From: Alphaproteobacteria bacterium | GTDB taxonomy: Bacteria; Pseudomonadota; Alphaproteobacteria; UBA7887 | Length of the DNA stretch: 64,000 nt | NCBI GenBank assembly: GCA_030739735.1 | Contig: JASLYQ010000002.1 | Coordinates: forward strand, 1-64,000 | Reading direction: 5' to 3' | In this document: in pieces, positions 54,629 to 60,716 of the stretch | Position numbering within the stretch: position 1 is the first letter of the stretch | Layout of the letters: each line of letters begins with the position of its first letter | The notes under the pieces: model-generated | Database searches by the model: none | Told to the model about the DNA's origin: nothing | What the model saw: the letters and a program-made list of their open reading frames with translations, nothing else | Position numbers and translations under genes: made by a program

Positions 54629-55789
54629 CTACACGCGCACCCGCAGATGCTGCGGGCCAAGCTCGGCGAGCTTGCTAACTCCGACCAAGGTCATATTACG
54701 ACGAATCTCATCCCTGAAAATCTGGAAAACGCGATCGGCGCCCGCTGGTCCCCCACCCGCCAGACCGAAAAGGAACGGCCGGCCCGTCATGCAGGCCTTG
54801 GCACCGAGGGCGACGGCCTTGAGGATATCAGTGCCACGGCGCACACCGCCGTCGAGAATGACCTCGGCCCGCCCGTCCACGGCCTCGACGATCTCCGGCA
54901 GCACGTCGATCGGCGCCGGCGCCTGATCGAGCTGGCGCCCACCGTGGTTCGAGACGATGATGGCGCTGAAGCCGAGGTCGACGGCGCGACGCGCATCCTC
55001 GGCGCAAAGCACGCCCTTAATCGCAAACGGGCCACCCCACTCCTCGATCATCCACGCCGCGTCATCCCATGACACCGACGGATCGAACTGGGAATCGATA
55101 AACCTGCTCATGGTCGTCAGGTCGTTGCTAACGGCTGAGTTCTCAATATTGGGAATAGAGACTTTTGGCGCCGTCAGATAATCGCGCCAGAACCAGGCGG
55201 GGTGGCGCAGAACGTCGAAAACAAGTTGCGGGCTCACCTTCAGCGGCAAGCCGAACTGATTGCGAAAATCGCGCTCGCGCTTACCGAGAACCGGCACGTC
55301 GACGGTCAGGCAGAGCGCCTTATAGCCGGCTTCGCGGCAGCGGCAGATATATTCGCCAGTGAGCGAGCGATCGCGCCAAACGTAGATCTGGAACCACATG
55401 GCGCCATCGGGACCAGCTGCGACCGCCGCATCCTCAATGCTGGTTGAAGCGCCGGTCGAGAGCGTGTAGATCGAGCCAGCCCGCGCCGCGGCAGCGGCCA
55501 ACGCACCCTCCCCTTCGCGCCGGAACAAGGCCACGATACCAGTCGGCGAGACGATCAGCGGCAAGTCGATGCGCCGGCCCATCACCTCCGCGCCGATATC
55601 AACGGAATCCAGCCCAGCAAGCATTCGCGGCACCAGGTCGTAGCGTCCGAAGCCAGAGCTGTTGTGGCGCAGCGATATCTCGTCCTCGGCTGCGCCATCG
55701 GCAAAATCGAATATGGCCCGCGGCAGGCGACGCTTGGCGAGCGCGCGCAGGTCCGATACCGCAGGGCAGTTATCTACGGGATTGGATAT
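54629..55789 (-). CDS. FMN-dependent alpha-hydroxy-acid dehydrogenase/oxidase (LldD family); no standard start codon found
   Basis: The FMN barrel is clear: RMLAGLDSVDIGAEVMGR, PTGIVALFRREGEGALA, YTLSTGASTSIEDAA, WFQIYVWRDR, and the catalytic base in IVSNHGGRQLD with following RRGTDILKA. The first canonical start is GTG 55633. However, the conserved N-terminus continues in frame for 52 codons upstream (NPVDNCPAVSDLRALAKRR, then LPRAIFDFADGAAEDE), back to ATATCC at 55787-55789. At that point relatives normally have ATG-Ser. No ATG, GTG or TTG occurs in frame before the preceding stop. I give the end at the ATA, which may be a non-standard start, a mutated start, or an assembly error. It likely oxidises a 2-hydroxy acid imported by the adjacent transporter. 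Confidence 0.8.
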   Translation of the reverse strand: MSNPVDNCPAVSDLRALAKRRLPRAIFDFADGAAEDEISLRHNSSGFGRYDLVPRMLAGLDSVDIGAEVMGRRIDLPLIVSPTGIVALFRREGEGALAAAAARAGSIYTLSTGASTSIEDAAVAAGPDGAMWFQIYVWRDRSLTGEYICRCREAGYKALCLTVDVPVLGKRERDFRNQFGLPLKVSPQLVFDVLRHPAWFWRDYLTAPKVSIPNIENSAVSNDLTTMSRFIDSQFDPSVSWDDAAWMIEEWGGPFAIKGVLCAEDARRAVDLGFSAIIVSNHGGRQLDQAPAPIDVLPEIVEAVDGRAEVILDGGVRRGTDILKAVALGAKACMTGRPFLFGLAGGGPAGADRVFQIFRDEIRRNMTLVGVSKLAELGPQHLRVRV

Positions 55790-55950: not shown

Positions 55951-56424
55951 ATGAAATTATCCGCAGCACTTTTGCTATTCTACTTTTCTGTCCAGACTGC
56001 GATGGCGCAAGTGCCTCCCTTGGTAGGATACGCCTTGGTTTGTTTGCATCCGGATGCAAAGACCAGTTTTGAAATAGAGTCTGTCCCTCATGAGTATGTT
56101 TCAAAGAACGGTGAATTTCTTGGGCAAATATATAAATTCTATATTGATCATGTCGAAGGGTTTCGGGATTGGGAAAGGGGCTGGGAGATATTAGGGAAAA
56201 AAACTCACTACAAAGAAATGAAAAATCAATGGGTTTGGTCGTTAACTTATTTAGGAGGGATGGGGGGATATTATGAGGAGCACTGGTTAAGTAAAGATAC
56301 GCAGAAACTTACAACTTACGTCGGCTCCTATCCGCCTACTGATCTAACAGAAGAACCTTCCAAATATTGTCAACTTGCAAGTTTTAATGGGGTTGACGAA
56401 ATTTTGAGAAATTTATCTCGGTGA
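55951..56424 (+). CDS. AT-rich gene for an exported protein of unknown function
   Basis: The 157-residue protein has a signal peptide (MKLSAALLLFYFSVQTAMAQ, cleavage after AMA), then a mature part of about 137 residues rich in Tyr and Trp (WGYYEEHW-like segments such as GGMGGYYEEHW) and two cysteines (LVCLHPDAK and KYCQLAS), which may form a disulfide. The codons are markedly A/T-ended compared with every neighbour, which points to recent acquisition. No family was recognised. It stands alone between the LldD-family gene (divergent) and the carbamoyltransferase fusion. Confidence 0.7.
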   Translation: MKLSAALLLFYFSVQTAMAQVPPLVGYALVCLHPDAKTSFEIESVPHEYVSKNGEFLGQIYKFYIDHVEGFRDWERGWEILGKKTHYKEMKNQWVWSLTYLGGMGGYYEEHWLSKDTQKLTTYVGSYPPTDLTEEPSKYCQLASFNGVDEILRNLSR

Positions 56425-56927: not shown

Positions 56928-57428
56928 ATGGACGAGTTTCATATGGGTATCAACCTCGGGCATGATCGCTCCGTGGCCGTGGTCAGAAATGGCGAGATTC
57001 TAGTCGCAATCGAGCAGGAACGTCTCGACCGCGTCAAACACAGCGTGGGTTTTCTGATGCAGACCCCACATGCACTGGAGCAAATCCAGGTTCCCGGTGA
57101 GTGCATTCGCTACTGCCTGGACACCCTGGGGGTGCCCCTGGCTGAGATGGCAACCATCACCGCCAACATGCCAGGGATCGACCACGGTCCTGCCATCCTC
57201 CAGGGAAAATTTTCCAGGGACATCTCCGGGCAAGTCCGGACCGTCCCCAGTCACCATCTTGCCCACGCCTATTCGGCCTACTGGCCCTCTGGATTCGAGG
57301 ACGCCCTGGTGCTCGTGGCCGATGGCAGCGGCTCCTCCTTCCGCTCCGATGAAGGACGGTTATGCACCGAGGCCACGAGCCTGTATGTGGCCCGAAGAGG
57401 ACGTCTCGAGCCGCTTCACCTTGAGTGA
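56928..57428 (+). CDS. Carbamoyltransferase, N-terminal piece (stops at an in-frame TGA)
   Basis: This is the opening 166 codons of a NodU/CmcH-type O-carbamoyltransferase. It shows MGINLGHDRSVAVVRNGEIL, the iron-binding SHHLAHAYSAYWPSGFE with His109, and LVLVADGSGSSF, all from the Kae1-like ASKHA domain that makes and transfers the carbamoyl-adenylate. TTAGGAG gives a good ribosome site. TGA at 57426-57428 then interrupts the frame in a poorly conserved loop; the same frame continues as the next entry with no other stop. The TGA most simply came from CGA. Alone, this piece would not be active. Confidence 0.75.
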   Translation: MDEFHMGINLGHDRSVAVVRNGEILVAIEQERLDRVKHSVGFLMQTPHALEQIQVPGECIRYCLDTLGVPLAEMATITANMPGIDHGPAILQGKFSRDISGQVRTVPSHHLAHAYSAYWPSGFEDALVLVADGSGSSFRSDEGRLCTEATSLYVARRGRLEPLHLE

Positions 57429-57467
57429 GTTCAAGCCCACCTAGCTGACCTGTCAACTCTTGGTTTT

Positions 57468-60326
57468 GTGTTTGAGCACGTCGCCCGCAAGGCGGGCTTG
57501 GTCACCACCGCCGGGCCGAACGTCCGCTTCGCGGAAGCAGGAAAGCTGATGGGTCTGGCGGCCTACGGTGGCCCCCAGACAAACTGGATGCGTTGGTTCC
57601 AGCCGGTGGACGGTGCGCCCCGAGTGACCGTATCAGCCTACGACATCTTCCTGGAAATAGCTGCCCTCGAGAAGCGCTACGACAACGGTGAGGGCAAGGC
57701 CTACTTCCGACCGTGGCTGGTGGACCTTGCCCACAAAGTCCAGCAGGAGCTCGAGGACGCCCTGGTACATATCGTCGATGTCGCCCTTGAGCAGACCGGC
57801 CTCCGGCACCTCTGCATGGCTGGGGGGATCGCGCTCAACTCCGTCGCTAATTACCACATCCTCCGGAGTTGCCCACTCGATGACATCTTCACCTTCCCCG
57901 CCGCGGGTGATAACGGCATTGCTGCAGGGTGTGCCCTGTGGGCCTACAGCAACCTCGAGGGAGGGACCCAGCGCTCGCGTCTACGCACCGCAACGCTCGG
58001 GAGAGCTCCTGCCGAGGAGGAGAGCGCCGAGGCCATCAAAGGCTACGAGGATCTACTGGTCGTGGAGAAACTCGAGCCGGAAGGGATGATAGACACCGTT
58101 GCTGCCGCCCTGGCCCAGGGGAGCATTGTTGCGCGGTTTGAGGGCGGTTGCGAATTTGGCCCAAGGGCCCTCGGCCACCGCTCCATTCTCGCTGATCCCA
58201 TCTTCCCCCGGATGAAGGATGTCATCAACGCGCGAGTAAAATTTCGGGAGGCCTTCCGTCCCTTCGCCCCGGTTATCCCCCTGGAGAGGGCTAATGAGGT
58301 GTTCGTCCTGGACACCGAGAGCCCTTTCATGTTGTTGGTGGCGGAGATCCGCCACGAATTCCGCACCGTTCTGCCGGCCATTACTCACGCCGATGGAACA
58401 GGTCGAGTTCAGACTTGTACCCGGGAGGACAACCCATTCTTCGCGACATTGTGCGAAGCCCTCTCTGAACGACGAGGGGGGCCGCCGGTGCTACTCAACA
58501 CAAGCTTCAACGTGGCCGGTCAGCCCATCGTCGAGACACCCGCAGAGGCCATTGCGACCTTCCTTCAGACTGACATCGACTACCTTTCACTGGGCGACCG
58601 ATGGATTCGCCGTCGCCATACTCCGGTCAAAGGCTACGCGGCCCACGAGGCAACGCTAGTGGACGAAGTTCTGCCCCAGGGGCTGCCGTCCGGACAACCA
58701 TCGGTACTCTCCCTGATGGAAGCGCTCGATCGGGCGCTTTTCCATGGAGTTCAGACACCACACTGGAGCACTGAGGAGCTGGTCACCCTCGCCGCAGAAG
58801 GCGGGCGCTTCAAGGAGACCAGCCGCCTATTCCCTGATACTGGCTTCGTGGCACCGCTGCAGACCGAGCTTGGACCTAACGCAGTGCTGATTGCGGATCC
58901 CATCGGCGCCTCCTCCCTGGTCGATCCTACCGACCGACTGCCGCCCGTGCGTTTGAACCGCGACCAACTGGAGCTGCTGCTTGCCGCGCGATACGACCCC
59001 GCCAAGTTTGGCGAGCAGCTGAGGATCGCGCTTGGTTATGGGCCGCGGGAACTCGACGATGCGTTCCAGGCATTACAGCAGGAGACCGTCCACTTCGGTG
59101 TAACCATCGACGAACGCTGGCTGGCAGGCGCGCAATCCGACGATAAGCCCATCCTCACGCCGGTTGACCGGACCCTGGCCCCCTTCGCCAACCCGGACTT
59201 CCGGCTCGATGGTGTACTGACTACCTTGGCCCTGGCCCTTCGTGGCCATGACTATACCGAGTCTACCATTACCAGGCTGCTGGGTGTGGAATCGCTGCAA
59301 CGGATTGAGCCCACCCACCTGCGCTACTACGACGCCCACCACTTGACCCAGACCCCACTCGCGGATCTCATCCGCCTGTTTTTGCTGAGGGGGCAGCTGC
59401 CGGCAGAGCGAGTTTCCGCCATCCTTGGCGCACAAGTCTCCACCCGCCTTGTCGATCTGCATGTGCTCAGGGTGATCGACGGACACGTCTGGTCCGATGT
59501 CGACCTGTATTGCTCCGGCGGCATGGTCTTTGCGACAGACCATAGGTACATGCTCCTCGACGGTGACCAGCTGGACGAAGACCCGGTGATGTATATCGGG
59601 ATGGACAGCCACGGTCTCGTGCAGACGGCCCCCCGCACACCGTGTAACCGTCTGCTCGACCTCTGTTGCGGGTCCGGCATCCAGGGCATCGTCGCCAGCC
59701 GATACGCCGCCAATGTCGTGGCGGTAGATCTGAACCCGCGCGCGGTGCGCTTCGCTCGATTCAACGCCCAACTCAATGGACTCCGCGCCTACGAAGTCCG
59801 GCTCGGCAATCTCTACGAGCCAGTCGCGGGCGAAAGGTTCGATGTTGTCCTAGCCAATCCTCCTTTTGTTCCCAGTCCCGAGATGGGCCTGCGTTTTCGA
59901 GATGGAGGTGCCAGCGGGGAGTCCCTATTGCGCCAGATCGTCGCCGGTGCAACCGAGCATCTCAAGGCTCGGGGCCGTATCTGCATCGTCACCGACCTCG
60001 TCGACGTTGATTCCTACGAGGACAAGCTTCGTGCCTGGTGGGGTCCGGAGTCGCACGAGGCGCTAGTGCTCAAGACCGCGGATCGGGATGAGATTCTTTT
60101 CTCGGTTCCTCATTGCCACGCGCCCTTTGCTCAGACCTTCGAAGATTACAACCATGCGCTCGATAGGTGGGTCAGCAACTTCCGGAGCACAGAGCTTCGA
60201 AAAGTCAACTTCGGTTACCTGTTTCTCTGGCGTATGGCCGCCGGACCCGACAGCGCCATCACTGTCCGCACTATCCACAATCCTGCGCGGCCCATGCACA
60301 TGGAGATTTCCCACTGGTACTACTAG
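57468..60326 (+). CDS. Carbamoyltransferase (rest of catalytic domain and C-terminal domain) fused to a SAM-dependent methyltransferase
   Basis: It continues the previous frame; the codons 57429-57467 are also open (VQAHLADLSTLGF). In joined numbering, residues about 168-400 finish the ASKHA domain (KLMGLAAYG, LCMAGGIALNSVANYHIL). Residues about 400-570 are the carbamoyltransferase C-terminal domain (EGGCEFGPRALGHRSILADP, LNTSFNVAGQPIVETP). Residues about 575-760 are unassigned. Residues about 760-890 resemble the helical DUF7059-type N-domain of actinobacterial-style methyltransferases. Residues about 890-1100 form a class I methyltransferase with LLDLCCGSGIQG and NPPF at 977-980. The NPPF motif suggests N-methylation of an amide, amine or base. 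The 953-codon piece could start at GTG 57468 but would lack the HHxxHA site. A role in tailoring a small molecule is inference. It stops at TAG. Confidence 0.8.
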   Translation: MFEHVARKAGLVTTAGPNVRFAEAGKLMGLAAYGGPQTNWMRWFQPVDGAPRVTVSAYDIFLEIAALEKRYDNGEGKAYFRPWLVDLAHKVQQELEDALVHIVDVALEQTGLRHLCMAGGIALNSVANYHILRSCPLDDIFTFPAAGDNGIAAGCALWAYSNLEGGTQRSRLRTATLGRAPAEEESAEAIKGYEDLLVVEKLEPEGMIDTVAAALAQGSIVARFEGGCEFGPRALGHRSILADPIFPRMKDVINARVKFREAFRPFAPVIPLERANEVFVLDTESPFMLLVAEIRHEFRTVLPAITHADGTGRVQTCTREDNPFFATLCEALSERRGGPPVLLNTSFNVAGQPIVETPAEAIATFLQTDIDYLSLGDRWIRRRHTPVKGYAAHEATLVDEVLPQGLPSGQPSVLSLMEALDRALFHGVQTPHWSTEELVTLAAEGGRFKETSRLFPDTGFVAPLQTELGPNAVLIADPIGASSLVDPTDRLPPVRLNRDQLELLLAARYDPAKFGEQLRIALGYGPRELDDAFQALQQETVHFGVTIDERWLAGAQSDDKPILTPVDRTLAPFANPDFRLDGVLTTLALALRGHDYTESTITRLLGVESLQRIEPTHLRYYDAHHLTQTPLADLIRLFLLRGQLPAERVSAILGAQVSTRLVDLHVLRVIDGHVWSDVDLYCSGGMVFATDHRYMLLDGDQLDEDPVMYIGMDSHGLVQTAPRTPCNRLLDLCCGSGIQGIVASRYAANVVAVDLNPRAVRFARFNAQLNGLRAYEVRLGNLYEPVAGERFDVVLANPPFVPSPEMGLRFRDGGASGESLLRQIVAGATEHLKARGRICIVTDLVDVDSYEDKLRAWWGPESHEALVLKTADRDEILFSVPHCHAPFAQTFEDYNHALDRWVSNFRSTELRKVNFGYLFLWRMAAGPDSAITVRTIHNPARPMHMEISHWYY

Positions 60327-60716
60327 CAGCAGCGCTGGCACGCCCAAGATGCAGCCAAAGCCCATGTCTGTTTGCACCCAGATGCTCGGCTTCAGCACAC
60401 CCATGGGCCAGATGGATCAAACCCGGCCTATGCCCTTTCTGTTCCGGGCAACGATTTCTACACCACCTACACGCTCACTCCCCGCACCTACGAAGAACTT
60501 TGCCATATCGCCCGGGTATCCCCGCGTCGCGGTGAGGCTCATCTTGCAGAGTCCCGATGGCTCCATCGGCTTCATCGCCGGGGCCTGGTGCGCTTGGAGA
60601 ACCGCGCTTCAGGCCCAAGGGTGTCGGCGGTGCCGATGGCACCAGCCGACGAAATTGACATCGTCGAGCATGCGACGAAGACGACGCCAACCTGTCTAAC
60701 GTCCTACCTAACATGA
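60327..60716 (+). other. Open continuation in the same frame beyond the amber stop
   Basis: After TAG at 60324-60326 the same frame stays open for 129 codons: QQRWHAQDAAKAHV, NPAYALSVPGNDFYTTYTLT, PRTYEELCHIARVSP, ending at TGA 60714-60716. The composition looks protein-like in its first half. Possible meanings are a former C-terminal extension, readthrough, or a separate small ORF (TTG 60372). No family was recognised. Confidence 0.3.

What the first reader, a model, noticed from the sequence alone, without database searches (positions are those of the whole stretch)
56928..60326. Carbamoyltransferase fused to a DUF7059-like SAM methyltransferase, alone in an acquired-looking patch
Seen: ASKHA carbamoyltransferase motifs (SHHLAHA, FGPRALGHRSI), then about 190 unassigned residues, then a helical domain plus a class I methyltransferase with LLDLCCGSGIQG and NPPF. 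Established: NodU/CmcH enzymes O-carbamoylate small molecules (antibiotics, Nod factors), and NPPF/Y methyltransferases N-methylate polar groups. Inference: one polypeptide may both carbamoylate and methylate a metabolite. No sugar, NRPS or PKS genes are nearby, so the substrate is entirely open. I do not know a described system with this architecture.
Basis: partly seen in the sequence, partly recalled or inferred. Interest (0 to 1): 0.75.

Follow-up and report, generated by a model that had tools for sequence, protein, structure and literature searches.

The report
Carbamoylating-methylating fusion enzyme with conserved tail
Marine bacteria of several phyla share one large protein that joins a carbamoyl-adding enzyme to a methyl-adding enzyme and always ends in the same short peptide, which may be what the enzyme modifies; the copy in this genome is the same gene but recently broken by two stop codons.

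Summary
The fusion is real and conserved. Ten uninterrupted relatives of about 1210-1265 aa, plus three cut by contig ends, occur in Myxococcota/Deltaproteobacteria, Pseudomonadota, Verrucomicrobiota and Planctomycetota. The window copy has two in-frame stops: TGA 57426 and TAG 60324. These end in a C-terminal tail, KTTPTC[LV][ST][SN]YLx, found in all 12 readable C-termini and always at the very end. The tail is 91% identical between relatives and the linker before it 14%, at equal synonymous divergence, so selection acts on the peptide. No neighbouring gene is conserved. The methyltransferase resembles AerE, which N-methylates amide side chains of a ribosomal peptide and shares the NPPFV motif, and GenN. 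Best explanation: a self-contained peptide modifier that carbamoylates its own tail and N-methylates an NH2 group there, possibly the new carbamoyl. The fusion is shown, the tail as substrate is inferred, and the methylation target is speculative. RiPP-recognition domains were suspected, but most tests failed. The window copy is probably a recent pseudogene; assembly error is not excluded. Borosins and crocagin/StdF are the closest precedents.

The parts
56928..58622 (+). NodU/TobZ-type carbamoyltransferase module (ASKHA), interrupted by TGA
   Evidence: PF02543 and PF16861; GdmN, NovN and TobZ structures by sequence; motifs located
57426..57428 (+). in-frame TGA stop 1 (codon 167)
   Evidence: intact relatives have varied residues at this column
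58623..59120 (+). unassigned middle region, including a predicted three-strand/three-helix domain (about 58857-59096)
   Evidence: [quoted passage not shown] no Pfam or PqqD match
59250..59480 (+). DUF7059 domain
   Evidence: PF23186 above cut-off
59610..59996 (+). class I SAM N-methyltransferase domain, LDLCCGSG and NPPF
   Evidence: PF05175; Foldseek to GenN and AerE; the NPPF Asn aligns with AerE N231 (counted from the alignment)
59856..59867 (+). NPPF catalytic motif
60336..60614 (+).
   Evidence: aligns with intact relatives; AF2 strands then helices; no PDB fold match
60615..60677 (+). variable linker; pattern hydrophobic-x-E shortly before the tail
   Evidence: 14% mean pairwise identity; strand predicted at this pattern in both models, low confidence
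60678..60713 (+). invariant C-terminal tail KTTPTCLTSYLT, proposed in-cis substrate peptide
   Evidence: 12 of 12 readable C-termini, 91% identity against 14% in the linker
60714..60716 (+). natural stop codon

Best explanation
This is a single-gene peptide-modifying enzyme that carries its own substrate. The N-terminal NodU/TobZ module makes carbamoyl-adenylate from carbamoyl phosphate and ATP and transfers the carbamoyl group. The DUF7059-NPPF methyltransferase then methylates a planar NH2 nitrogen, most economically the NH2 of the newly installed carbamoyl (N-methylcarbamate or N-methylurea). The acceptor is the protein's own flexible C-terminal tail KTTPTC[LV][ST][SN]YLx, presented by the winged-helix-like C-terminal domain. 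Shown: fusion, domain identities, conserved motifs, peptide-level selection on the tail, absence of conserved neighbours. Inferred: the tail is the substrate. Speculative: that methylation falls on the carbamoyl nitrogen, and which residue (Lys, Thr, Ser, Tyr or Cys) is carbamoylated. The window copy is the same gene, probably inactivated recently by two stops.
For: Fusion in all close relatives, 10 of them complete uninterrupted ORFs. Tail present in 12/12 readable C-termini, always ending 6 residues after Cys, behind an unalignable linker; identity 0.91 against 0.14 at equal synonymous divergence 0.65. The tail is absent from fetched standalone carbamoyltransferases and DUF7059 methyltransferases, and beyond the fusions its DNA pattern recurs in host genomes only at chance-like sites. 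No conserved neighbours, so no partner or precursor gene. The methyltransferase's best structural matches include AerE, a peptide-amide N-methyltransferase (E 4e-17), and further down the list the carbamoyl N-methyltransferase Asc-Orf2 (E 3e-8); it shares NPPFV with AerE. Precedents: StdF, a NodU-like enzyme, carbamoylates a Lys in the conserved C-terminal motif of a RiPP precursor (PMC13174530); crocagin uses carbamoyl- and N-methyltransferases on one peptide (PMC10070186); borosins fuse an N-methyltransferase to a C-terminal core peptide (PMC11285071).
Against: No reaction shown. The AF2 models do not dock the tail anywhere with confidence (pLDDT below 50 for 662-675). Recognition-domain tests mostly failed. 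No protease or transporter is conserved nearby, so release of a product is unexplained. A highly conserved tail is also expected of a docking or regulatory element; core peptides in other RiPP families often vary more than this (own knowledge). Asc-Orf2 is only a general class I methyltransferase-fold match.
Confidence: 0.42

Rival explanations
1. Bifunctional tailoring enzyme for a diffusible small molecule: carbamoylation and N-methylation of an unknown metabolite, with the conserved tail serving as a structural, docking or gating element (for example reaching into the other subunit of a dimer).
For: NodU, TobZ, GdmN, NovN and GenN, the nearest characterised enzymes, act on small molecules. 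In Mycetohabitans rhizoxinica an adjacent carbamoyltransferase and methyltransferase pair, each about 30-39% identical over the aligned part, sits beside an NRPS gene.
Against: No biosynthetic, transport or regulatory neighbours are conserved. The linker before the tail is unconstrained while the tail is nearly invariant and ends at a fixed distance from the stop, which is unusual for a structural element.
Confidence: 0.33
2. HypF/HypE-like carrier: the tail cysteine transiently holds a carbamoyl group (thiocarbamate) or another acyl group and hands it on; the tail is an arm, not the product.
For: HypF passes a carbamoyl to HypE's C-terminal cysteine in a conserved PRIC motif (PMC12130793). 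The tail has an invariant Cys. Weak HypF_C_2 match, E 4e-5, in L052.
Against: Cys is not the last residue and the PRIC motif is absent. The carbamoyltransferase module is NodU/TobZ-type, whose known members transfer carbamoyl directly.
Confidence: 0.1
3. For the window copy itself: a recently dead gene. Two nonsense changes ended expression of an acquired gene; nothing functional is made here.
For: Stops at codons 167 and 1133; no suppressor tRNA among 38 typed tRNAs, the 39th having Ns at its anticodon; single copy; sporadic presence.
Against: No frameshift in 1262 codons. Codon-position differences are as skewed as between intact relatives, also behind the TAG, so decay is very recent, or the stops are base-call/strain-mixture errors or are read through.
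Confidence: 0.7

Closest known systems
Borosins, types I-III (OphMA)
   Same: N-methyltransferase and C-terminal substrate peptide in one polypeptide that modifies itself (PMC11285071; PMC11395268).
   Different: Here the methyltransferase is class I MTS/DUF7059, not the borosin methyltransferase; a carbamoyltransferase is fused; self-modification is not shown.
StdF, NodU-like carbamoyltransferase fused to a peptidase S8/S53 domain (std RiPP cluster)
   Same: NodU-like enzyme in a multidomain fusion acting on a conserved C-terminal peptide motif containing Lys (PMC13174530).
   Different: StdF acts on a separate precursor and carries a protease; here a methyltransferase is fused and the candidate peptide is part of the enzyme.
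Crocagin pathway, CgnI plus CgnL
   Same: Carbamoylation and N-methylation of one ribosomal peptide (PMC10070186).
   Different: Separate enzymes in a gene cluster; CgnL methylates the freed N-terminus; different tail.
AerE/PoyE asparagine N-methyltransferases
   Same: Class I fold with NPPFV motif; structural match E 4e-17; the NPPF Asn aligns with AerE N231.
   Different: Standalone enzyme acting on proteusin precursors; about 19% identity.
DUF7059-MTS-DUF7782 standalone methyltransferases
   Same: Same DUF7059 plus MTS core; common in Planctomycetota.
   Different: No carbamoyltransferase, no tail; their C-terminal DUF7782 is not recognised in the fusions.
HypF/HypE
   Same: Related carbamoyltransferase chemistry ending on a C-terminal Cys peptide (PMC12130793).
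   Different: Two proteins, PRIC motif with terminal Cys, cyanide product.

Membership tests
NodU/TobZ carbamoyltransferases | PF02543 and PF16861 domains above cut-off | tested here: met
   99 and 207 bits against cut-offs 24 and 27
NodU/TobZ carbamoyltransferases | conserved motifs HHxAHAY, AGGxxLNSxxN, GPRALGxRS, FRPFAP, LNTSFN | tested here: met
NodU/TobZ carbamoyltransferases | carbamoyl transfer activity | not testable with these tools
   needs assay
DUF7059 methyltransferases | DUF7059 followed by MTS domain | tested here: met
   PF23186 32 bits (cut-off 27), PF05175 65 bits (cut-off 23)
DUF7059 methyltransferases | C-terminal DUF7782 | tested here: not met
   found in standalone L036 and L063 (just below cut-off in L041), not in fusions; hhalign probability 0.3%
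AerE-like peptide amide N-methyltransferases | fold match and NPPF active site | tested here: met
   E 4e-17, TMt 0.64-0.68; NPPFV aligned, Asn = N231
AerE-like peptide amide N-methyltransferases | methylates an amide nitrogen in a peptide | not testable with these tools
   needs assay
[quoted passage not shown]
   present in the AF2 model of the middle domain at pLDDT about 80-93; C-terminal domain has four strands
RiPP recognition element (PqqD-like) | profile similarity to PqqD (PF05402) | tested here: not met
   no PF05402 hit; hhalign 1% and 14%
RiPP recognition element (PqqD-like) | fold match to a solved RRE (C-terminal domain) | tested here: not met
   best E 0.93, kinases; model pTM 0.55
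Borosin | borosin-type (tetrapyrrole-methylase) methyltransferase domain | tested here: not met
   Pfam gives class I MTS only
Borosin / fused-core RiPP | C-terminal core peptide modified in cis | tested here: inconclusive
   invariant C-terminal tail; modification not testable
RiPP gene cluster | neighbouring protease, transporter or other maturases | tested here: not met
   no neighbour shared between groups except common PVC families such as sulfatases
HypE | terminal PRIC motif | tested here: not met
   tail is KTTPTC..YLx

The most novel reading that the evidence does not exclude
A new class of self-modifying ribosomal peptide system: one gene encodes carbamoyltransferase, N-methyltransferase and their substrate tail, producing an N-methylcarbamoylated (or N-methylureido) peptide in cis, spread by horizontal transfer among marine bacteria with no other genes required.
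Probability: 0.28. Interest if true: 0.86.

Novelty: new variant of a known kind. Interest (0 to 1): 0.6.

Why it matters
RiPP carbamoyltransferases are exceedingly rare: crocagin is called the only well-characterised case before StdF (PMC13174530), and both act within gene clusters on separate precursors. A one-gene version with an invariant C-terminal peptide would be a second route to 'enzyme fused to its substrate' beside borosins, would be missed by cluster-based mining because it has no cluster, and can be tested by mass spectrometry on one expressed protein. Whatever the substrate, a two-step carbamoyl/methyl enzyme conserved across several phyla with no described function is a clear target.

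Tried and rejected
Stop codon recoding: 38 typed tRNAs include no suppressor, and the 39th has Ns at its anticodon. Conserved operon: none. Viral carriers: no relative of the methyltransferase half in viral contigs, phage records match only the carbamoyltransferase half, and the single viral tail-pattern hit is not in a matching open frame. Plasmid carriage: no plasmid record covers 80% of the query. Separate small peptides with the same tail in host genomes: extra pattern hits were chance matches, except L034, which is the missing C-terminus of L008's gene. PqqD/RRE identity by HMM, hhalign and Foldseek: not supported; a first hhalign run was void because minus-strand loci were not reversed. 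Repeats flanking the patch: only short chance-like pairs. Structured RNA near the gene: none. Literature search for DUF7059, DUF7782 or the tail motif: nothing.

Full report
OBSERVATION. The open frame starting at 56928 encodes a carbamoyltransferase (PF02543, PF16861), about 200 unassigned residues, DUF7059 and an MTS-type methyltransferase. Two corrections follow. First, the frame contains two stops, TGA at 57426-57428 and TAG at 60324-60326, and continues without frameshift to a stop at 60714-60716. Second, the hidden C-terminal part of about 130 codons holds a winged-helix-like domain, a variable linker and a conserved tail.

IS THE FUSION REAL? Yes. A scan of GTDB genomes found 11 loci at 57-66% identity. 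Eight are complete single ORFs and three are cut by contig ends. Two more distant complete fusions (L075, L076) came from Planctomycetota genomes. Hosts include Verrucomicrobiota, Planctomycetota, Arenicellales and other proteobacteria, and a deltaproteobacterium. The protein tree mixes phyla: Verrucomicrobiota fall in two clades, and Planctomycetota in at least three places. That fits horizontal transfer, although mis-binned MAG contigs could contribute. In the window's family none of eight other genomes has the fusion. In 385 genomes of its class only a partial methyltransferase match turned up besides the window itself. In 388 genomes of the Verrucomicrobiota phylum only the centre genome had it, so it is rare.

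THE TAIL. All 12 readable C-termini end KTTPTC[LV][ST][SN]YLx, with the stop always 6 residues after Cys. This count includes the window, and L008, whose C-terminus lies on another contig (L034). Between relatives the tail has mean identity 0.91 and the preceding linker 0.14, while the share of identical residues that use different codons is 0.65 and 0.64. The conservation is therefore at the peptide level, not the DNA level. Fetched loci of standalone carbamoyltransferases and DUF7059 methyltransferases contain no such tail, and the degenerate DNA pattern occurs about once per host genome, at the fusion itself.

METHYLTRANSFERASE. The AF2 model of L002 residues 590-1264 (mean pLDDT 76, pTM 0.82) matches GenN (E 1e-19), AerE (E 4e-17) and, among many class I enzymes, the carbamoyl N-methyltransferase Asc-Orf2 (E 3e-8). 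By sequence, NPPFV is shared with AerE; counting along the alignment places the NPPF Asn at AerE N231, the residue mutated in PDB entry 7rc5. AerE methylates Asn side-chain amides of a peptide bound in extended form (PMC11285071). A carbamoyl group also presents a planar C(=O)NH2, so sequential carbamoylation and N-methylation is chemically natural. This last step is inference.

RECOGNITION DOMAINS. [quoted passage not shown] However, HMM, profile-profile and fold tests did not support RRE identity. I therefore do not file these domains as RREs. Both models place a short strand just before the tail, at low confidence.

GENOMIC CONTEXT. No neighbour is conserved between the groups except broad families such as sulfatases. 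In the window the gene lies between an FMN-dependent dehydrogenase and a 2-hydroxyacid dehydrogenase, with an AT-rich upstream flank. This is a one-gene system, which is easiest to understand if enzyme and substrate are the same chain, or if the substrate is common in cells.

STATE OF THE WINDOW COPY. Identity to L001 before, between and after the stops (0.72, 0.66, 0.48) is no worse than L001 against L002 (0.73, 0.65, 0.36), and third codon positions dominate the differences. The stops are therefore recent, erroneous or tolerated. No suppressor tRNA was seen. I favour recent inactivation. Assembly error is possible, since this is a draft of 69 contigs.

MECHANISM AND RIVALS. Best: in-cis modification of the tail (0.42). 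Main rival: small-molecule tailoring with a structural tail (0.33), supported by the chemistry of most family members and by a split carbamoyltransferase/methyltransferase pair beside an NRPS in Mycetohabitans. Carrier-arm chemistry like HypE is less likely (0.1). Which residue is modified is unknown.

NOVELTY. I found no description of this architecture. Each module belongs to a known family, and fused-substrate enzymes and RiPP carbamoyltransferases are each known, so I rate it a new variant. If self-modification is proved it would be a new class.

Noticed in passing
window 54629-55789 (-): The FMN-dependent dehydrogenase frame extends upstream of its first listed GTG but has no ATG/GTG/TTG there; an ATA stands at 55787-55789 where the start seems expected. 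Either an unusual start or another point lesion close to the fusion gene.
   Followed up: partly
window 55951-56424 (+): 157-aa ORF with a signal-peptide-like start, low GC3 (0.39) and no Pfam match, in the AT-rich flank.
   Followed up: partly
L120 11992-14710 (Mycetohabitans rhizoxinica HKI 454 plasmid pBRH01): Overlapping carbamoyltransferase and NPPF methyltransferase genes directly upstream of a large NRPS gene: a split pair of similar enzyme types.
   Followed up: partly
L036, L041, L053-L063 and others: Standalone DUF7059 methyltransferase relatives are common in Planctomycetota (53 of 392 genomes match at E 1e-12, three of them fusions), some in tandem pairs; function unknown.
   Followed up: partly
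L036, L039, L041, L063 C-termini (DUF7782): hhalign gives DUF7782 a 69% probability of similarity to PqqD, hinting that this unknown domain may be a peptide-binding winged helix.
   Followed up: partly
L128 141-221 (G000 contig C11): A tRNA gene whose anticodon region is a run of 10 Ns (scaffold gap); its anticodon cannot be read.
   Followed up: yes
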